This document shows, piece by piece, positions 32,330-41,825 of a stretch of DNA of 57,804 nucleotides (positions are counted from its first letter, which is position 1; each line of letters starts with the position of its first letter). A model generated the notes under the pieces. That model was not told where the DNA came from, ran no database searches, and saw only the letters and a list, made by a program, of their open reading frames with translations. Source of the stretch: Bacteroidales bacterium (GTDB lineage Bacteria > Bacteroidota > Bacteroidia > Bacteroidales > VadinHA17); assembly GCA_003141715.1 (NCBI GenBank), contig PLNF01000027.1:1-57804 (forward strand), written 5' to 3'. The translations under genes were made by a program, and so were the position numbers.

Positions 32330-33151
32330 TCAGATCGCGATCATGGAATTTACATATTTATTTATATTAATGTCGGAGCTAACTACCACTTTGACAGGAA
32401 TAGAAAAGTAAATTCCTGTTCCGGTAAGACCGTTGCATTCAACACAGATAGTTCCGCCCAACATCTGAATTAGCTTCTTGGCCAGGGTAATATTAATAGC
32501 TGTATAAGTATCATTGTGTAGAATAAGAGATTCATTCAAATCCTCTGTTTGAAGAAATTCTTTGCATTTGAAATAACCCTGGCCTGAGTCGAGAACATAG
32601 AAGTTTACTTTATCGTCCCTGAGAAAGTACCCAATCTTAACATACCCTGAATTGGTGTTTTTTATTGAATTCTGGAACAGACTACGAATTACCCTGGAAA
32701 TCTTGTTCTTATCAATAATAACTTCAGTAGAATTTGAGAACTGTATCTCAGTTACCAGTTCAAGATCCTTGTGACCTTCTTTTTGTAGTTCTTCCCTGAA
32801 TTCTGAAATAAGGTCATCAAGAAAACTATCGAGTTTGCATATTTTTGAATCAGCTTTTGAATTACCCGTATCAATTATCGCCGAATCAAGAAAACTATCG
32901 AACAGACCAATTAATTGTTCACATGCACCCAATATCTGACTACTGAATTCTTGACGGTCTGAATTGTTGCAGCTACTATCCTTCATCAGAAATGAAAATG
33001 CAACTATTGCATTCATGTGTGTTCTCATTTCATGAGAAATCCCTGTTAATACTGTTGGACAATTTATCATATTAATATTCGATGAATTCATATCTTTCCC
33101 CATTACCCTGATCTTCATTTGTGATCTATTTTCACCATGTGAATCGTACAT
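32330..33151 (-). CDS. Soluble histidine kinase without a recognisable sensor domain
   Basis: A 273-residue protein. The H-box is at residue 40 (GISHEMRTHMNAIVAF), followed by a dimerisation helix and an ATPase domain (N-box FQNSIKNT, G-box DSGQGYF, then GTGIYFSIPVKV). There is no membrane segment and only about 35 residues lie before the H-box, so input must come from a partner. It follows the TPR/anti-sigma-like gene by 22 bp on the same strand and is likely cotranscribed. No response regulator is adjacent; the receiver-only protein at 26176 is the nearest. Confidence 0.85.
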   Translation of the reverse strand: MYDSHGENRSQMKIRVMGKDMNSSNINMINCPTVLTGISHEMRTHMNAIVAFSFLMKDSSCNNSDRQEFSSQILGACEQLIGLFDSFLDSAIIDTGNSKADSKICKLDSFLDDLISEFREELQKEGHKDLELVTEIQFSNSTEVIIDKNKISRVIRSLFQNSIKNTNSGYVKIGYFLRDDKVNFYVLDSGQGYFKCKEFLQTEDLNESLILHNDTYTAINITLAKKLIQMLGGTICVECNGLTGTGIYFSIPVKVVVSSDININKYVNSMIAI

Positions 33152-33173: not shown

Positions 33174-33923
33174 TTACTTTAATCCACTGATTATTTTTTT
33201 TGCATCATTTTTGTAAATACCATCCTCTTTTATAATTATTTTGAAAAGTTGCTTTGCTTTTTCCGTTTCATTGGTATTGAGGTAACATAAAGCCAGATAC
33301 CACTGAGCCTGGTCAATATACAGGTTGTTTTTGTCATCAATCACCTTACCAAATGATTGTTTCGCTTCCGGATATTTCTTCTCCTCAAAATTTGCAACAC
33401 CTTTTAATAAGACTGTCTGCATATCATTCGGTTTGTTATCAAGCACTTTGTTGAAAAGAATCGCGGCATTCTCATAATCATGAGTATTATAAAACTCAAG
33501 GGCCAAAGTGAAATCAGCATCTGCTCCCGATTGAGCTGACCTTTGATTTGTCGGAGGTTCATATACCTTATAATAGTGTTTCATTATTTTCTCACTATTA
33601 AGATTCTTTCCCGAAAACAATGTAATACTTCCAATCAGAATAAGTCCTGCAAAAACTGCTGCATATCTGATGTAAGTCGTTTTCTTTGAGTCTTTTGAAG
33701 ATTGAGTCACCTCTTTTCGCTGATTTTCAATTCTGGAGAGCTTATTCCTTAATGAAATTACATTCTGGTTCTTTAGAATCTCATCAGTACGCTTCCTGAG
33801 ACTGACCTCATTTCTGAGTTTTTCGTTACCTTCAAGCTCCTTTTGGAACCATTGTCTTTCTGCCTCGCTCATCTCCCCGGCATTATACCTTTCGATGAAA
33901 TATGAAAAATCAATCGTTTTCAT
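33174..33923 (-). CDS. Membrane-anchored TPR protein, anti-sigma-like
   Basis: A 249-residue protein with a charged N-terminal helix-rich region (FIERYNAGEMSEAERQWFQKE, residues 9-29), a single membrane segment at about 87-104 and a C-terminal region (about 137-245) with three TPR-like units (ALEFYNTHDYENAAILFNKVL and onward). The N-terminal region faces the cytoplasm in the topology N-in/C-out and resembles zf-less anti-sigma or FecR-like N-termini. The TPRs would be periplasmic. It is placed with the sigma factor and CHAT genes and I infer it may sequester the sigma factor. It could instead be a scaffold of unknown role. Confidence 0.65.
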   Translation of the reverse strand: MKTIDFSYFIERYNAGEMSEAERQWFQKELEGNEKLRNEVSLRKRTDEILKNQNVISLRNKLSRIENQRKEVTQSSKDSKKTTYIRYAAVFAGLILIGSITLFSGKNLNSEKIMKHYYKVYEPPTNQRSAQSGADADFTLALEFYNTHDYENAAILFNKVLDNKPNDMQTVLLKGVANFEEKKYPEAKQSFGKVIDDKNNLYIDQAQWYLALCYLNTNETEKAKQLFKIIIKEDGIYKNDAKKIISGLK

Positions 33924-34144: not shown

Positions 34145-34279
34145 TCAGAGTATGATCGGGGGCACGTTTGATTTAATAATCGGGTCATTTTCTCCGCCAC
34201 GAACAGAAATCATCTCTTCAATTGAAAGTGCAAACTCAGTAAAAATGTCTTTTGTCAATTTTGAATTCAGGGTTTTCAT
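34145..34279 (-). CDS. Double-glycine leader peptide (candidate bacteriocin, pheromone or RiPP precursor)
   Basis: A 44-residue ORF, too short for usual cut-offs. The leader (residues 1-29) contains FALSIEEMISVRGG: a regular hydrophobic/acidic pattern, EEM and a Gly28-Gly29 ending, as in double-glycine leaders cut by C39 peptidases and in the Bacteroidota 'GG natural product precursor' family. The remaining core (residues 30-44, starting END and ending PPIIL) is 15 residues, Pro/Ile-rich, without Cys, Lys-containing. It lies in a 588-bp gap between the TPR and CHAT genes and 4 kb from a C39-ABC exporter plus HlyD gene, the only ones in the window. No modification enzyme is seen, so the core may be unmodified. 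The start ATG follows an AT-rich sequence without clear promoter. Confidence 0.7.
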   Translation of the reverse strand: MKTLNSKLTKDIFTEFALSIEEMISVRGGENDPIIKSNVPPIIL

Positions 34280-34458
34280 AGCTTTTTTTATTAGTCAGGG
34301 TAATTCTTAATTCAGTTTCTATACTTCTACATGTCGGAGGATACCGTTTTGTGACACGAAAAAATCAATTATTTTTAAAATATTTTTTTATCCTCACATA
34401 ATCAGATAATTACAGAGAACAATATTTTGTATAAATAATGAATATGATTTGGTTTTAT

Positions 34459-34511: not shown

Positions 34512-37500
34512 ATGAATTTTAAAAAGCAAATTTCCAGATTTGTTATTATATATGTGTTCATTTTTGCCGGATGCATTAATTCATCTTTGATCATGGGCAC
34601 TTGCATATCCGCTAATTTTTACGACAGGAATAATTCTGTGGTATTCACTCTCCCTTATGTAATTAACAATTCATCAAAGGAAGTCGCCAAGCTAAATGGA
34701 TCGCTTAAAGGTTCACTTAATATCTTATTATCAGGAGGTGACAGCGCACAAAGCCGGCTTATAACAGAAAAAATAATCAAGAAAATAGATGCCAATGATA
34801 TTAATGATTCAGTTTTGTCTGAATCTTATTACCTTATTGGGATATATTATTTATTTACCAAAGCTTATAATGAATCAATCCGTTACCTTGGTCTTTGTAT
34901 TTCTTTTAAGGAGAAAACAGGCGAATATGATGAGTGTTATGCCAAAGCTTTATATAATCTTGGTGCTGCATACCTGAGTATTGGGGATATTAAAAGGCAT
35001 GAAGAATTTTCATCGAAGTCCATGGAAATTGAAAAAAAAATAAATGGCGAGTCAAGTCCGCTTCTGGCCAGTATATACCTTAGCCTGGGTTTAGCTTATT
35101 CAGAACTCCAGGAGCATGACAAGTCATTAAATTATTTTAATTATGCTCTGACAATAGCAAATAGCAAACCAGACAGCGTTCCTCCCTCGATAAAAGCTGA
35201 TATTTATACTAGTTTAGGCGGAAGTTATTGCAGGATTGCTGATTTCTCAAAAGCTAAAATATACCTCGATAAAGCAGAATTGCTCTATAACCAATTTAAC
35301 TTAAAGATCAGTGAAAATTATATCAATCTGATGAATAGCCTGGCAATAACCGACGGAGCCCTGAAGCTTACTTTTGAAGCAGGGGAATGTTATAAAAAAG
35401 TTATTCCTGTCGCTTTAGCTAATAATTCACCACTGTCTTATAATTTAATAAATAGTTATTCAATATTTCTGGCTAATAATGGCGACTCTAAGAAAGGTGA
35501 AGAGTTACTTAAAAATGCTCTTGAACGGGCACAAAACAAATTTAAATTATCTTCCCGAAACTATATTGAAGTACTTATCAACTATGCGAACTACTTACGG
35601 GTTAATAATATTGATAATAAAAAATCGCTTGAATGTTTCGGGAAGTGCCTAGAATACCTTCAAATGAATGACCAGGACGTTTCTTTGAAAACCTCTGTTT
35701 ATGTGGGATATTCTCTTTCATTGGATGAAGCTGGGGAACAGGAAAAAGCGCTGGAAATATTACAGTCTTTGCTTGTTTCAAACCCGGAAAACCTGCAGGG
35801 CAAAGGGAAATATATTAATCCTGACATTGATAAGATCAAGCCGGACAGAATATCTTTAAATATTCTCTATACAAAGTACAGGATTTTATGGGATATCTAT
35901 AAAAAAACAGGTGACCAGAAGACTCTTGAAGCCGCCTCAAATACCTCAGAATTAATAGTTTCAATTATAGAAAAAGTAAGGATAAATATAAGTGACGACG
36001 AAAGCAGACTTATCCTTGGCGACCGTTACAGAGATTCCTACCTTAATACAATACACGATTTCAATATTCTTTATAATAAAACAAATGATACCCGTTTCCT
36101 GGAAAAGGCATTTGAATATTCGGAAAAAAGCAAAGTCGCGGGTTTGCTTACATCCACCAGGGAATTAAAAGCAACCCAGCTTAATATTCCTTCAGGTATT
36201 GGAGAATATGAAAAGAAACTGCAGGTGGATATAAACCTGTTTAATGCAAGGTTGGCCGAAGAGACAGCCAGGGAAAAACCTAATTCTGAGTTGATCAATA
36301 AATGGAAGGAAAATCTATTGGAGACGACAAGGTCAAGGGATTCACTGATCCTGATCTTTGAAAAACAATACCCTCTTTATTATACAATAAAATACAACAC
36401 CAATGCGGTTGAACTTAAGGATATTCCCAGGATATTAGGTCACAATGGTAATTATATAAATTATGTTTTATCTGACACTATCCTGTATACTTTTGTCGCC
36501 AACAAGAGATATCATCAACTTATAGCAATTCCTGTTGATTCATCATTTTTTAGTGATATCAGAAAATTCAGGAGCTTATTATCAATGCCGCTGCCTTCGG
36601 ATAATGCATCTCAGAAATTTAAAGAATTTCAGGTTGTAGGATATAGATTGTTTAAGACTCTTATTGATCCTGTAAGATCCTATCTTATTTCTAATAAGAT
36701 ATTAATTTCTCCCGACAATATTCTATCATATCTTCCATTTGAAACTATTCCGACATCTCCTGATTCACCGAAAAATATCAGGTACAGAGACATAAGGTAT
36801 CTTATGAAAAGTTATGATATTTCATATACCTATTCTGCGACTTTTATGGCAGAATCAGTAAAAAAAGATTACAACAGAATCAACAAACTAATTGCATTTG
36901 CCCCAGATTATCGCGAACCAATTGATATCCAATCTGTTTTAATGTCTCGACAAGCAGGAACAGGTGTCCTGAATGATTTACCTTTTGCCCGGCAGGAGGC
37001 AAAGTATGTATCAGATATTACGGGTGGGACATTGTTTGCAAATAGTGCCGCAAAAGAATCAGTTTACAAGAGAGAATCAGGTAAATATGATATAATCCAT
37101 CTGGCTATGCATACTCTGTTGAATGATAAAGACCCTATGAATTCAACACTGATCTTCAGCCAGGGAAATGATTCTCCGGAAGACGGTTATCCTTAAAACT
37201 TATGAGGTTTATGGCATTCCTCTTAAAGCTAAAATGGTCGTTCTTAGTTCATGCAATACAGGTAACTGGCCTTTTATACTCCGGTGAAGGCATATTAAGT
37301 CTTGCCAGAGGTTTTATCTATTCTGGAAGCGAGTCAGTAGTAATGTCAATGTGGGAGATTGAAGATAAATCAGGGACAGAGATTGTTGAAATGTTTTATA
37401 AATATCTTAAGAAAGGATATCCTAAAGAGTGTTGCTTTGAAAAAAGCAAGGATTGCCTTTTCTAGAAAATGCAGATCAGCTGAGGTCTCACCCTTACTTT

Positions 37501-37719
37501 TGGGCTGCCCTTGTAGTATATGGAGACAATTCACCATTATACTACTCAAGCAGACTTAAAATTGCTATTATAACAATTATTGCCTTTTTATTATTTTCGG
37601 CGTGGATTTTATTTCTGGAAACGAAAATACTCCTGATATTCAGCATCTTCTTTCACAAGATCAAGAAGAGCTTCCTTGCTCAGGTATTTTTTCCGTCCTG
37701 GCGTAGACCTCATTTTTAA
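34512..37719 (+). CDS. Exported TPR-CHAT (caspase-like) protein, 3' end frameshifted in this sequence
   Basis: As written, the frame breaks after 894 residues (37196). Removing single extra bases at about 37191, 37264, 37424 and 37458 restores one protein of about 1067 residues. The N-terminus is a signal sequence (FVIIYVFIFAGC, possible lipobox). TPR units fill about 100-260 and weaker helices continue to about 470. The CHAT domain covers about the last 400 residues: catalytic His867 in HLAMH, then Cys in VLSSCNTG (codon 37252-37254, reachable only after the first correction). A membrane segment closes the protein (37561-37617). CHAT domains are caspase-like cysteine proteases or relatives. 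The exact C-terminus is uncertain. Convergent with the sigma factor, whose end it overlaps. Confidence 0.82.
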
Positions 37720-38179
37720 GATTCATTTTCACTGCAATCTCTTCATACGTGAGTTACCATCAGCGAATAGATTCAAATACCATTTGCTGGTCGGGTTTTA
37801 ATCGTGGAAATACCCTGCTGATAATTCTTTCCAGAATCAGATCATATTGTTCTTCAGTTTCCCCCTCATCAGGAATATCTATCTCCAGTTCTATTGTCTT
37901 TTGCTTTTTTCTGAGCAGTGCACTCCATACATTACGGGCGATTCCAAAAAAATAACCTTTAAGTTCCGTTGTAAGATGCAGGTCATCTTCTGTGATCTGA
38001 TTGTAAAGTGCTATTATGGTATCCTGGAAAACATCGGAAACATCTTCATCGGATCCGCTATTACTTAGAACATGATTCTTAACTGATTGGAAATAATTAT
38101 CATAAAGCCAATTCAGAACCTTATCATCCTGATTGCGTATCCCGGTTATTATGTTGATATCAGATATTTTATTAAACAA
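37609..38179 (-). CDS. Sigma-70 family (ECF-like) RNA polymerase sigma factor, 3' end frameshifted in this sequence
   Basis: Region 2 is clear (NQDDKVLNWLYDNYF, then DEDVSDVFQDTIIALYNQI). As written the frame stops at 37760, before region 4. Removing an extra base at 37768, two at 37748-37749 and one at 37695 restores a helix-turn-helix (QQMVFESFADGNSYEEIAVKM, then EVYARRKKYLSKEALL) and a stop at 37609, total 188 residues, the usual length. A longer start (TTG at 38224) is possible, but a -7 box sits at 38207-38214, so I prefer the TTG at 38179. It probably directs expression of local genes in answer to an envelope signal. Confidence 0.8.
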
Positions 38180-38339: not shown

Positions 38340-40526
38340 ATGTCTTTCCCTTTTGTAAAACAACCCGATGCAATGGATTGCGGACCTGCCTGCCTGAAAA
38401 TGGTGGCAGGATTTTACAAAATGAATTTTACCCTTGAATCTCTCAGAAGAAAGTGTTATATAACCAGAGAAGGAGTTTCTTTTCTCGGACTTTCTGAAGC
38501 TGCTGATTCTTTGGGTTTTAGAACTTTAGGCGTAAAAATTCCTTTTGAAATAATGAATGAGAATGTTCCACTGCCGTGCATTGTGCACTGGCGGCAAAAA
38601 CATTTCATTGTCATATACAAAATCAAGAATGAAAAAATCTGGGCTGCGGACCCTGCAGTAGGTCTGATTAAATTCAGCCGTGAGGAATTTATCCGGAGCT
38701 GGGCATCTACTGTAATAGATGAAAAACCAGCTGGCCTTGTACTAATAATTGAACCGACACCATCGCTTTTTAAAAATGAGAACGAGAAGGAAAATACAAC
38801 GGGTTTTAAATTTCTGTTTAAATATTTCCGTCTCTACAAAAAATATTTTTATCAGCTTATTCTGGGTTTAGTCCTTGGAAGCTGTATTCAGCTGGTAATA
38901 CCGTTCCTTACCCAGTCCATTATAGATATTGGTTTAAATAATAACGATATAGGATTTATTTACCTTATCCTTTTTGCCCAGCTGGCTCTGGTTTTTGGAA
39001 GAATGTCGGTTGAGTTTATAAGAGGCTGGTTGTTGCTTCATATCGGTTCAAGGGTTAATGTAGCTGTTATATCTGGATTCCTTCAAAAACTAATGTCATT
39101 GCCAGTAGCTTTTTTTGATACAAAACTTACCGGTGATATTCTTCAGCGTATTGAAGATAATAACAGGATTGAAGAGTTTCTTACTTCTGCCAGTCTGAAC
39201 ATCTTGTTCTCTTTTTTCAACCTGGTTGTTTTTGGTATAGTGCTTGCCATTTTTAGTACTAAAATACTTGCCTTATTTCTAACTGGGTCATTATTATATA
39301 TAGTATGGGTTTCGATGTTTATGAAATCAAGAGCCAGGCTTGATCATCAGCGTTTTAAACAGATGTCTGTTTCGGGGAACAAACTCATAAACATTGTTAA
39401 TGGCATGCAGGAGATCAAGCTCACGCAAAGTGAATTAAGCATGCGATGGGACTGGGAAAGGCTTCAGGCTATCTTATTTGGATTAAAGGTAAAAGGATTG
39501 AGTATAATTCAATATCAGTCTGCCGGAGCAACATTTATAAATGAAGTGACCAACGTTCTTATTACAATTGTTGCCGCAACAGCAGTTCTTAAAGGTAATA
39601 TGACTCTTGGTATGATGCTTGCTGTTCAGTTTATAATAGGTCAGCTGAATGTGCCTGTCAGTCAGATAATTGGATTCTTCCGCATGTCTCAGGATGCAAA
39701 AATGAGCCTTGACCGTCTGGCTGAAGTCCATAACCTTGAGGAGGAGGAACCTGATCCTGAAGTGAAAGTGCGAAAGCTTCCAGATAAAAAGGATATCTAT
39801 TTTAATAGCCTTTCCTATCAGTATGAGGGCCCGCGTTCGCCATTTGCATTAAAAGATATTGACCTGTTCATTGAAGAAAATAAAATAACTGCAATCGTTG
39901 GAACCAGCGGCAGCGGAAAAACAACCTTGTTAAAGATGCTCCTGGGTTTTTATCATCCTGTTGCAGGTGAAATACTTATTGGTGACTTACGTTTGTCTAA
40001 TCTCAGCCTTAAAGTCTGGAGGAAAAAGGTTGGAGCTGTTATGCAGGACGGATTCTTATTTCCCGACACTATCGCAGCTAACATAGCTCCCGGATCTGAA
40101 GAAATAGAGGAGAAAAGACTAATTAATGCAGTTGATATTGCAAACATCAGAGGATTTATCGAGTCTCTTCCATTGGGATATAATACCAAAATAGGAGCAA
40201 ATGGTCACGGATTAAGCGAAGGTCAGAAACAACGGTTGCTTATTGCAAGGGTAATCTATAAGAATCCCGATATTATAATTTTTGATGAAGCAACTAATTC
40301 ACTAGATGCCAATAATGAAAAAGTAATTGTTGAAAACCTTGCTGATTTTTTTGAAGGTAAGACGGTTATTGTTGTTGCACACCGGCTCAGTACTGTAAGA
40401 AACGCAGATAAGATTGTTGTTCTTGACAGTGGCAGAATAATTGAAACAGGTTCTCACGAATCGCTTATCGCGAAAAAAGGAGCATATTATAACCTTGTAA
40501 AGAATCAACTTGAACTGGGTAGTTAG
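38340..40526 (+). CDS. Peptidase-containing ABC transporter (C39 double-glycine peptidase, PCAT)
   Basis: A 728-residue exporter with three parts. The N-terminal C39 peptidase has C14 in QPDAMDCGPAC, H88 in RQKHF and D104 in ADPAVG, a complete catalytic triad. Then come six membrane segments (about 165-440) and an ATPase domain (Walker A GTSGSGKTT, signature LSEGQKQRLL, Walker B IIIFDEATNSLD, switch VAHR). Such proteins cut a peptide after a Gly-Gly leader and pump the core out. The candidate substrate is the 44-residue peptide encoded at 34145. It is followed after 9 bp by its HlyD-like partner. A TolC-type channel is not in the locus and would have to be supplied from elsewhere. Confidence 0.95.
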   Translation: MSFPFVKQPDAMDCGPACLKMVAGFYKMNFTLESLRRKCYITREGVSFLGLSEAADSLGFRTLGVKIPFEIMNENVPLPCIVHWRQKHFIVIYKIKNEKIWAADPAVGLIKFSREEFIRSWASTVIDEKPAGLVLIIEPTPSLFKNENEKENTTGFKFLFKYFRLYKKYFYQLILGLVLGSCIQLVIPFLTQSIIDIGLNNNDIGFIYLILFAQLALVFGRMSVEFIRGWLLLHIGSRVNVAVISGFLQKLMSLPVAFFDTKLTGDILQRIEDNNRIEEFLTSASLNILFSFFNLVVFGIVLAIFSTKILALFLTGSLLYIVWVSMFMKSRARLDHQRFKQMSVSGNKLINIVNGMQEIKLTQSELSMRWDWERLQAILFGLKVKGLSIIQYQSAGATFINEVTNVLITIVAATAVLKGNMTLGMMLAVQFIIGQLNVPVSQIIGFFRMSQDAKMSLDRLAEVHNLEEEEPDPEVKVRKLPDKKDIYFNSLSYQYEGPRSPFALKDIDLFIEENKITAIVGTSGSGKTTLLKMLLGFYHPVAGEILIGDLRLSNLSLKVWRKKVGAVMQDGFLFPDTIAANIAPGSEEIEEKRLINAVDIANIRGFIESLPLGYNTKIGANGHGLSEGQKQRLLIARVIYKNPDIIIFDEATNSLDANNEKVIVENLADFFEGKTVIVVAHRLSTVRNADKIVVLDSGRIIETGSHESLIAKKGAYYNLVKNQLELGS

Positions 40527-40535
40527 CAAGGATAT

Positions 40536-41825
40536 ATGAAAAATCAGAGGCCTGAAATATTATATTCTGACCCCGTTAGAGAGATTATGGGAAAACCTCC
40601 GAGTAGAATTCTCAGGTGGGGAACAACAGTTATGCTTTTGGTTTTCGTTCTTTTTATTCTCTTTGCCTGGTTAATAAAGTATCCCGATACAATCCCTGCT
40701 CCGGTTGAAATTACTACAACTAATCCCCCTGTAACTCTTGTTACTAAAATAACAGGACATATAAACTCTTTTTTTGTAAAGGAAAGAGAAAAGGTTAGTG
40801 CCGGGCAGTTGGTTGCTGTTATGGAAACTACAGCCTCCTTGCACGAAGTTGAATTACTTAAACAAACAATTGACACAATTAAGAACCCGGAGTTACTTTT
40901 TTATCGATTGCTGCCACTTTTCTCGGAGCTTGGTGAGCTTCAGAGTTATTATGGAACTTTTCTGAAAAACCTTTCTGACTTAAATAATTATGTGAATAAT
41001 GATTTTTATGGTAGCAAAATAGCTTCACTTAACAATGAAATAAATGGAATTCAGGAATTTATTACACGATTAAGTATAAAGGAAAAACTGTATTCTGAAA
41101 ATCAGCGACTTGAGGCAAAAATGTACAATAGGGATTCCTCTCTTTTTGCGGGTAGCGTGATACCTGAAAGTGACCTCGAGAGATCTCACCAATCGCTGTT
41201 AAGAGTAAATATAGAACTGCAGCAGGCTCGCCTTGACCATTCCGCAAAATCGATTGAGTTGGCTGAAAAGCGTCAACTTCTTGAGGATTACCGCATAACA
41301 CGGATAGATGAAAAACAAAAACTTGTTTCAGTTTTGCGTGAATCCTTTTTGAACCTTAAGTCACAAATTAATTTATGGGAAAACACTTACCTTCTTATCT
41401 CCCCGGTTGAAGGTATTGTTTCATTTACAAAGTTCTGGAGCGCAAATCAGTCAGTAATAAAAGATGAACCTGTGGTAAGTATTGTTCCTATTGAAACAGG
41501 CAGTTTCCTTGGCAGAATAGATCTGAAAATGGAAAGATCCGGCAAAGTGAAAACCGGACAATCAGTTAATATTAAGCTGAGCGGCTATCCTTATCTGGAA
41601 TATGGAATGGTAAGAGGCATAGTAAAATCTAAATCACTCGTGCCTTCAGGTGATGCCTATGTAATTGAAATTGAACTTCCGGAAGGTCTTACGACTTTAT
41701 ATGGGAAAAAACTTGATTTTACTCATAATATGCAGGGTACCTCTGAAATAATTACTGAAAATATCAGGCTTCTTCAAAAGATAGTTAATCCTTTTCGCTA
41801 TATGGTAACAAAAAACAGAAAATGA
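40536..41825 (+). CDS. HlyD-family secretion adaptor
   Basis: A 429-residue periplasmic adaptor with one membrane anchor (about 28-46), a barrel-sandwich half (KITGHINSFFVKEREKVSAGQLVAVME), long coiled-coil helices (about 130-280) and a second lipoyl half (LLISPVEGIVSFTKFW) with a C-terminal beta domain. It is the natural partner of the C39 transporter upstream, which lies 9 bp before it. Together they form a type I secretion unit lacking the outer-membrane channel. Confidence 0.93.
   Translation: MKNQRPEILYSDPVREIMGKPPSRILRWGTTVMLLVFVLFILFAWLIKYPDTIPAPVEITTTNPPVTLVTKITGHINSFFVKEREKVSAGQLVAVMETTASLHEVELLKQTIDTIKNPELLFYRLLPLFSELGELQSYYGTFLKNLSDLNNYVNNDFYGSKIASLNNEINGIQEFITRLSIKEKLYSENQRLEAKMYNRDSSLFAGSVIPESDLERSHQSLLRVNIELQQARLDHSAKSIELAEKRQLLEDYRITRIDEKQKLVSVLRESFLNLKSQINLWENTYLLISPVEGIVSFTKFWSANQSVIKDEPVVSIVPIETGSFLGRIDLKMERSGKVKTGQSVNIKLSGYPYLEYGMVRGIVKSKSLVPSGDAYVIEIELPEGLTTLYGKKLDFTHNMQGTSEIITENIRLLQKIVNPFRYMVTKNRK

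What the first reader, a model, noticed from the sequence alone, without database searches (positions are those of the whole stretch)
34145..34279. Overlooked double-glycine leader peptide near a C39 peptidase-ABC exporter
A 44-residue minus-strand ORF ends its leader with EEMISVRGG and leaves a 15-residue core that starts END, ends PPIIL, and has no Cys. The sequence shows a complete ORF in a 588-bp gap. A C39 exporter with an intact C14/H88/D104 triad and a HlyD protein lie 4 kb away in the same locus. Double-glycine peptides with such exporters are bacteriocins, pheromones or RiPPs (established for the families, including the Bacteroidota bacteroidetocins). That this peptide is the exporter's substrate, and what it does, is inference.
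Basis: partly seen in the sequence, partly recalled or inferred. Interest (0 to 1): 0.85.

Follow-up and report, generated by a model that had tools for sequence, protein, structure and literature searches.

The report
Secreted peptide beside caspase-like protease module
A tiny gene missed between larger genes makes a short peptide that is probably cut and exported by the transporter next door, and its gene sits with a protease and a gene-switch pair, so it may be a new kind of bacterial peptide signal rather than a toxin.

Summary
The 44-codon ORF is a real gene. An HMM finds it in 51 of 62 genomes of the genus (E<1e-10), with a conserved 14-22 residue core ending near PP[IV]KI-stop. Codon changes are mostly silent in frame (pN/pS 0.36; about 1.3 out of frame). 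An ECF-type promoter precedes it: TGTCACA in 45 of 46 loci, the full pattern before 41 of 52 copies. Neighbours: ECF-type sigma factor, one-TM TPR anti-sigma-like protein, TPR-CHAT (caspase-like) protease, usually a histidine kinase, and the C39 exporter with HlyD. The leader co-varies with the exporter; the core co-varies, more weakly, with CHAT. A second such module in the same genome has its own GG peptide with an EPIIIIP core. In an order sample, 7 of 19 modules carry a divergent GG peptide, against 1 of 31 CHAT genes without the module (filter loosened after a first look; 5 and 0 with the first filter). Best reading: an exported ligand of a periplasmic CHAT protease controlling an ECF sigma factor. 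Export is well supported; signalling is inferred. It does not look like a bacteriocin or modified RiPP.

The parts
34145..34279 (-). GG-leader peptide gene (44 aa; stop codon 34145-34147)
34193..34279 (-). leader, 29 codons, ending VRGG
   Evidence: V/I at -4 in 47 of 47, M at -7 in 47 of 47, L at -12 in 46 of 47, GG in 47 of 47
34148..34192 (-). core, 15 codons (ENDPIIKSNVPPIIL)
   Evidence: counted from the stop: P at -5 in 46 of 47, P at -4 in 40 of 47, I at -1 in 40 of 47
34330..34356 (-). ECF-type promoter TGTCACAAA-N12-GACATG
33174..33923 (-). TPR anti-sigma-like membrane protein, downstream of the peptide gene in the same direction
   Evidence: Pfam TPRs; one TM near 85-103 in the 12 relatives printed; model of the window protein: N-terminal helices, TM, TPR part; fold matches are to TPR proteins only; NCBIfam anti-sigma match weak, E 0.075
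32330..33151 (-). histidine kinase without an evident sensor domain; missing in 5 of 42 relatives
   Evidence: HisKA over, HATPase_c below cut-off
34512..37719 (+). TPR-CHAT protease gene, frame-broken after 37196 in this assembly (end approximate)
   Evidence: CHAT, TPR; frames; longer than 900 aa in 42 of 49 relatives; fold of relative L032
37760..38224 (-). ECF-type sigma factor (frame probably also cut short in this assembly)
   Evidence: Sigma70_r2 over cut-off; TIGR02937 41.8 bits, cut-off 42.9
38340..40526 (+). C39 peptidase-ABC exporter
   Evidence: PF03412, ABC membrane and ATPase domains; Q8/C14/H88/D104 in 35 of 35
40536..41825 (+). HlyD-type adaptor

Best explanation
The gene encodes the precursor of an exported peptide ligand for a periplasmic TPR-CHAT protease. 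The ECF sigma factor encoded in the locus transcribes the peptide gene and the anti-sigma gene behind it from the conserved promoter (inferred). The C39-ABC/HlyD exporter removes the leader after Gly29 and exports the 15-residue core (well supported by sequence, not shown). The core then meets the TPR superhelix of the CHAT protein, which by hydropathy has an N-terminal signal and a C-terminal membrane anchor (inferred). Activated CHAT cuts or releases the one-TM TPR anti-sigma-like protein, freeing the sigma factor, which raises expression of the peptide and of surface proteins (inferred, by analogy with Csx29/Csx30/CASP-sigma and DegS/RseA). The peptide could thus act as a self or cell-to-cell inducer.
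For: Conserved gene in a conserved setting. Peptide and anti-sigma-like protein co-occur: 51 genomes have both, 2 the anti-sigma-like protein only, 0 the peptide only, 9 neither. Selection in frame. Promoter pattern TGTCACAAN{12,16}GACATG: 59 sites in 62 genomes, 41 within 200 bp upstream of a peptide gene; reversed pattern 4. Partial correlations: leader/C39 0.55, leader/CHAT -0.04, core/CHAT 0.37, core/C39 -0.10 (leader/C39 0.50-0.67 and core/CHAT 0.36-0.40 with other controls). Leader/C39 exceeds 185 of 186 windows of other proteins, core/CHAT 253 of 271; both survive leave-one-out. A paralogous module in the genus has its own GG peptide with an EPIIIIP-like core. Order sample: 7 of 19 against 1 of 31, one-sided P 0.003; 5 of 19 against 0 of 31 with the first filter, P 0.005. 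CHAT His/His/Cys identical in 53 of 53 proteins over 780 aa (which are catalytic is recalled). Fold matches include separase and Csx29. Precedent for a TPR-CHAT protease cutting a sigma inhibitor: PMC10028731 (passages).
Against: No expression, processing or cleavage data exist. The 33174-33923 protein is called anti-sigma from position, topology and a weak match; its fold search gave TPR proteins only. One genome (G026) lacks the peptide gene (and no kinase was found there) but keeps promoter, anti-sigma-like protein, CHAT, sigma and exporter. Core/CHAT covariation is moderate: 18 of 271 control windows reach it, 9 of 92 from PorE and 8 of 35 from the anti-sigma-like protein. With PorE as only control the leader also tracks CHAT weakly (0.18; 0.27 with 32 loci, 0.16 with 28). 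12 of 19 order-sample modules show no GG ORF by my filter, and one of the 7 (L264) has an unlike core. A signal-like N-terminal segment passes my hydropathy threshold in only 26 of 43 CHAT proteins, some with late starts. Module B has no C39 gene seen beside it. The window's own CHAT gene, and probably its sigma gene, are frame-broken.
Confidence: 0.5

Rival explanations
1. The peptide works inside its own cell envelope: it reports that export works, or it is a substrate or inhibitor of the CHAT protease, so that the circuit senses envelope or secretion stress and not cell density.
For: Same genetic evidence as the main reading; core/CHAT covariation does not say ligand, inhibitor or substrate. 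Extra promoter sites precede secreted-type proteins and HlyD-like genes.
Against: Nothing found here separates it from a released signal.
Confidence: 0.27
2. A bacteriocin: an antimicrobial peptide exported by the C39 transporter.
For: GG leader and C39/HlyD exporter; weak bacteriocin-model matches (2 of 39 members to TIGR01847, best E 0.091; 3 of 39 to TIGR03949, best E 0.012).
Against: Core conserved across the genus with a fixed C-terminus; no immunity gene recognised among the neighbours scanned; tied to a sigma/anti-sigma/CHAT set; the genome has a separate bacteriocin-like C39 locus.
Confidence: 0.1
3. A modified RiPP, for example a TIGR04149-type radical-SAM-modified peptide or a lanthipeptide.
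For: Weak matches of family members: 6 of 39 to TIGR04149 (best E 3.2e-4), 9 of 39 to TIGR03893 type 2 lantibiotic (best E 0.024), 5 of 39 to PF16934 Mersacidin (best E 7.1e-4).
Against: The window peptide has no match. The syntenic radical-SAM gene matches QueE models, below their cut-offs. No other maturase among the larger ORFs scanned between 15.2 and 57.3 kb; 1-15.2 kb was not scanned. Core lacks Cys in 46 of 47.
Confidence: 0.06
4. A conserved small protein whose GG is incidental, for example a regulatory upstream ORF of the anti-sigma gene.
For: It lies between promoter and anti-sigma gene; in G026 the promoter runs straight into the anti-sigma gene.
Against: Conserved core and leader positions typical of GG leaders; leader tracks C39; the paralogous module has its peptide before CHAT instead.
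Confidence: 0.05

Closest known systems
GG-leader peptides with peptidase-containing ABC transporters (PCATs), e.g. ComC/BlpC-type pheromones and class II bacteriocins (recalled)
   Same: Leader with GG and hydrophobic -4/-7/-12 positions; C39-ABC exporter with the catalytic residues in the locus
   Different: Acidic, proline-rich, C-terminally anchored core; the kinase here shows no sensor domain and is missing in 5 of 42 relatives; tied to ECF sigma, TPR anti-sigma-like protein and CHAT protease
Craspase / CASP system (Cas7-11, TPR-CHAT Csx29, Csx30, CASP-sigma)
   Same: TPR-CHAT protease beside an ECF-type sigma factor and a putative inhibitor; fold match
   Different: CHAT here looks secreted and membrane-anchored, the putative inhibitor is a one-TM TPR protein, no Cas protein among the window ORFs scanned (15.2-57.3 kb), and the input would be a peptide, not RNA
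DegS/RseA/sigma-E and other anti-sigma proteolysis
   Same: Membrane anti-sigma protein presumed cut from the periplasmic side
   Different: Caspase-like CHAT protease with a peptide gene in the circuit
DdvA, transmembrane anti-sigma factor (PDB 8rw5, 8rot; entry titles seen only)
   Same: A transmembrane anti-sigma protein whose structure matches the CHAT model, presumably through helical repeats
   Different: Comparison rests on fold alone; nothing on a GG peptide was looked up for DdvA
Bacteroidales RiPP clusters with PCAT and TPR genes (PMC10352776, passages)
   Same: GG precursors with PCATs in the same order; TPR genes in two of its clusters, for which it raises pheromone-bound gene regulation as in Rgg
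   Different: In the passages seen: rSAM and other maturases, no CHAT domain and no sigma factor
RRNPP peptide-TPR quorum sensing (recalled)
   Same: Short peptide and TPR receptor idea
   Different: The TPR protein here is predicted to be outside the cytoplasm and carries a protease domain

Membership tests
GG-leader peptide exported by a C39 PCAT | GG at -2/-1 with hydrophobic -4, -7, -12 (positions recalled) | tested here: met
   GG 47 of 47; V/I at -4 47 of 47; M at -7 47 of 47; L at -12 46 of 47, M in one
GG-leader peptide exported by a C39 PCAT | cognate C39-ABC gene with catalytic residues nearby | tested here: met
GG-leader peptide exported by a C39 PCAT | match to a curated leader model such as TIGR01847 over cut-off | tested here: not met
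   window peptide 0 models; 2 of 39 members, best E 0.091
GG-leader peptide exported by a C39 PCAT | cleavage after GG and export | not testable with these tools
   leader/C39 covariation is indirect support only
class II bacteriocin | antimicrobial activity | not testable with these tools
   none
class II bacteriocin | match to a bacteriocin model over cut-off, with an immunity gene | tested here: not met
   no match of the window peptide; larger neighbours assigned otherwise
bacteroidetocins | sequence likeness to known bacteroidetocins | not tested
   no such sequence was at hand
TIGR04149 rSAM-modified RiPP | model match | tested here: not met
   no match for the window peptide; 6 of 39 members, best E 3.2e-4
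TIGR04149 rSAM-modified RiPP | RiPP maturase in the locus | tested here: not met
   only a QueE-like protein among ORFs scanned
Craspase-like TPR-CHAT/sigma system | CHAT His/Cys residues with TPR | tested here: met
   H859, H863, C910 of L032 identical in 53 of 53; fold
Craspase-like TPR-CHAT/sigma system | Cas7-11 effector | tested here: not met
   none among larger window ORFs scanned, 15.2-57.3 kb
ECF sigma / anti-sigma pair | sigma-70 region 2 and region 4 | tested here: inconclusive
   region 2 over cut-off; TIGR02937 just below cut-off; frame seems cut short in the window
ECF sigma / anti-sigma pair | anti-sigma domain that binds sigma | tested here: inconclusive
   helical N-terminus then TM in the model; weak NCBIfam anti-sigma match, E 0.075; no anti-sigma fold match

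The most novel reading that the evidence does not exclude
A new class of peptide signalling in Bacteroidales: an ECF sigma factor makes a GG peptide, a C39 exporter delivers it, and a periplasmic membrane-anchored caspase-like TPR-CHAT protease reads it and cuts a TPR anti-sigma factor, with parallel, separately addressed peptide/protease/sigma sets in one genome.
Probability: 0.35. Interest if true: 0.92.

Novelty: new variant of a known kind. Interest (0 to 1): 0.76.

Why it matters
As far as I recall, peptide signalling is hardly described in Bacteroidota, and the job of most TPR-CHAT proteases outside CRISPR is open. This locus supplies a candidate ligand, protease, substrate, sigma factor and promoter in one place, with a repeat in the same genome and look-alikes in other families of the order, so both questions become directly testable with a synthetic 15-residue peptide and a promoter reporter.

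Tried and rejected
Curated models: Pfam and NCBIfam give nothing for the window peptide. Phylum search with the peptide HMM: besides the own genome 4 of 295 genomes, at E 0.0017-0.01, so this sequence family looks close to genus-restricted. Single-sequence search: outside the genus only G079 (4 places, best E 1.3e-4) and G070 (E 0.32) of 40 genomes. Plasmids and phages: no match. Bacteriocin and RiPP readings set aside as above. Nearby radical-SAM gene considered as maturase and set aside as QueE-like. Literature: ten searches, only some of which named CHAT together with sigma or GG terms, listed no paper that I could see joining CHAT, anti-sigma and a GG peptide in Bacteroidota; of the listings only PMC10028731, PMC8939145 and PMC10352776 were opened, each as passages; CHAT in PMC10352776 was an author name.

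Choices made after seeing data: the GG filter is looser than that and was set after one search had shown L277 and L264; with the filter the GG loci are 5 (L224, L251, L255, L257, L276) of 53 with a CHAT start, all with the module. CHAT regions: 58 of the 65 other genomes with a match, one each, not always the best match, plus two of the own genome; 10 of 60 dropped (start off the stretch or under 300 bp upstream), at least 4 of them with module genes. The second promoter motif (GG[TC][TA]AC) was read off the same sequences: 7 of 10 modules have one of the two motifs against 0.83 expected, a hint only. The 46 genus loci were fetched because the peptide search hit them, and the 14 module-B loci through HMM hits or synteny, so neither shows a rate; one search does. 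Module B's sigma rests on tblastn at about 28%: the ORF I gave to Pfam for it was on the wrong strand and gave nothing. Covariation used 27, 28 or 32 of the 46 loci, those with the needed genes complete; partial Mantel tests can be too liberal with related sequences, hence the window controls. Of 18 promoter sites away from the peptide, 13 were looked at and 5 not.

Full report
What is there. The ORF at 34145-34279 (-) is as described. The gap is 588 bp and the C39 exporter starts 4.06 kb away; Q8, C14, H88 and D104 are identical in 35 of 35 aligned exporters. No Pfam or NCBIfam model matches the window peptide.

It is a gene. A single-sequence search of 98 related genomes found matches in 48, own genome included. 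An HMM of 39 members searched in 62 genus genomes gives 52 places at E<1e-10 in 51 genomes. In the 46 genus loci fetched through such hits, the neighbours keep one order where the contig reaches: kinase, TPR anti-sigma-like protein, peptide, then CHAT, sigma, C39, HlyD. The anti-sigma-like gene is found in 46 of 46, CHAT in 45, sigma and C39 in 41 each; the kinase is missing in 5 of the 42 loci that show both its flanks. Over 78 pairs of peptide genes pN/pS is 0.36 (leader 0.32, core 0.42) and 1.29-1.37 in the other two frames. The core is 14-22 residues, mostly 15-16, and is conserved from the stop backwards: I at -1 in 40 of 47, P at -4 in 40, P at -5 in 46, P at -12 in 39.

Presence and absence. 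51 genomes have peptide and anti-sigma-like protein, two have the latter without a found peptide, none has the peptide alone, and nine have neither, nor a C39 ortholog of 71% identity or more. G026 is a clear loss: the promoter runs straight into the anti-sigma gene, with CHAT, sigma and exporter present and no kinase found. G029's anti-sigma match is partial (residues 49-249), so a contig end may hide the peptide. Two genomes (G010, G024) have the peptide without a complete C39 ortholog found; G010's C39 is cut by the contig end.

Promoter. The element TGTCACA lies upstream of the peptide gene in 45 of the 46 sequences that show the upstream DNA, window included; one (L043) has a changed first element and one more locus starts at the contig edge. 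The second element is mostly GACATG but differs in some (L044, L046, L050, L066). In two of the 45 the ORF used has an extended N-terminus, so the distance is short there. As the exact pattern TGTCACAAN{12,16}GACATG it has 59 sites in 49 of 62 genomes; 41 of 59 lie within 200 bp upstream of one of the 52 peptide genes; the reversed pattern has 4. Of the other 18 sites 13 were looked at. Some recur before like genes in two genomes: HlyD-like genes (G011, G036), a small secreted-type protein (G033, G039), a MAST[TS]ETGHAKNVANF protein (G029, G045); three more precede proteins that by eye have signal peptides (L288, L289, L294), others do not (L096, L291) or look like chance (L105). So the controlled set may include surface proteins and export parts. 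That this promoter belongs to the sigma factor next door is inference.

Partners. The CHAT protein is longer than 900 aa in 42 of the 49 genus loci with a CHAT hit; four others run off the contig and three are shorter. His859, His863 and Cys910 (numbering of L032) are identical in 53 of 53 proteins over 780 aa, 44 of this module and 9 of module B. By hydropathy 42 of 43 have a C-terminal membrane segment, mostly with a basic tail, and 26 of 43 an N-terminal one; no signal-peptide program was at hand. The model of relative L032 (pLDDT 83) matches human separase and Csx29 in the PDB, and the anti-sigma factor DdvA. The 249-residue window protein has an N-terminal helical part, one TM near 85-103 and a TPR part; its fold search gave TPR proteins only. 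Both would meet in the periplasm. The published Csx29 case, where a TPR-CHAT protease cuts an inhibitor of an ECF sigma factor, shows the principle (PMC10028731, passages).

Which part of the peptide goes with which partner. In 27 loci with the needed genes complete, with PorE and the nucleotidase gene as controls for descent, leader distances follow C39 (partial r 0.55, p 0.001) and not CHAT (-0.04), whereas core distances follow CHAT (0.37, p 0.001), less so the anti-sigma-like protein (0.27) and HlyD (0.28), and not C39 (-0.10). With other ways of controlling, leader/C39 is 0.50-0.67, core/CHAT 0.36-0.40, leader/CHAT -0.18 to 0.18 (Pearson). Windows of like length from other proteins of the locus reach the leader/C39 value in 1 of 186 cases and the core/CHAT value in 18 of 271. 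The pattern survives leaving out each genome and dropping close pairs; with PorE as only control and 32 loci, leader/CHAT is 0.27 as well. So the exporter link is firm for a covariation test; the CHAT link is suggestive.

Beyond the locus. The own genome has four CHAT genes. One, on contig C54, stands in a second sigma/anti-sigma/kinase set (tblastn 28-29% identity), and before it is a 55-aa GG peptide with core NADGNGSEPIIIIPKPL; 14 of 14 such loci taken have a like peptide, and by eye 11 of 14 have GTAACA upstream. Outside the genus, L171 and L188 have a GG peptide between CHAT and an anti-sigma-like gene (cores with EDEDILIPPP and DEDILIPDP); L184 has one before CHAT with the anti-sigma-like gene about 8 kb off; L071 has one (DDNPIILPPP) before an anti-sigma-like gene, its other neighbour not shown to be CHAT. 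A sample by CHAT domain alone (60 regions: 58 from other genomes, two from the own; 50 usable) gives a GG ORF in 7 of 19 with the module and 1 of 31 without; shuffled sequence would give 0.40 and 0.30; one-sided P 0.003. With the stricter first filter it is 5 of 19 and 0 of 31, P 0.005. All seven lie divergent to CHAT; six have acidic, mostly proline-rich cores and L264 does not.

Against a bacteriocin. The genome's other C39 exporter has two small GG peptides beside it that weakly resemble the two lactococcin-G-type peptides, below cut-off. That is what a bacteriocin locus could look like here, and the peptide of this finding is of another make.

Weak points. The window's own CHAT gene is frame-broken several times after 37196 and the sigma gene seems cut short at the convergent end; most relatives are intact, so assembly error is likelier than decay, but I cannot tell. 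No expression or biochemistry is known. The step from CHAT to anti-sigma cleavage is analogy. The kinase has no assigned role and is not always there.

Verdict. Observation confirmed. Gene: near certain. Substrate of the exporter: likely. Ligand in a CHAT/anti-sigma/sigma circuit: about even, and the reason for the score.

Noticed in passing
L286:3038-3366 (G000:C57): Second C39-ABC/HlyD locus of the same genome with two small GG peptides weakly resembling lactococcin G alpha and beta (below cut-off): a possible two-peptide bacteriocin in a Bacteroidales genome.
   Followed up: partly
window 37197-37790: Cluster of frame breaks in the CHAT gene and apparently in the convergent sigma gene; most relatives have intact CHAT genes. 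Probably assembly errors; left as they are.
   Followed up: partly
L088, L290, L292, L293, L094, L098, L288, L289, L294: Extra copies of the peptide promoter before secreted-type proteins and HlyD-like genes, some recurring before like genes in two genomes: a likely regulon.
   Followed up: partly
L276, L255: CHAT modules in other families with two tandem GG peptides sharing leaders and core ends (..PDIPPDPIKK; ..LWPPxPP..).
   Followed up: no
L093 / L213 (G026): Loss of the peptide gene with promoter, CHAT, anti-sigma-like gene, sigma and exporter kept (no kinase found); a natural non-producer candidate.
   Followed up: partly
L053, L058, L067, L068, L077: The kinase gene is missing between anti-sigma-like gene and PorE although the rest of the locus is there.
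   Followed up: no
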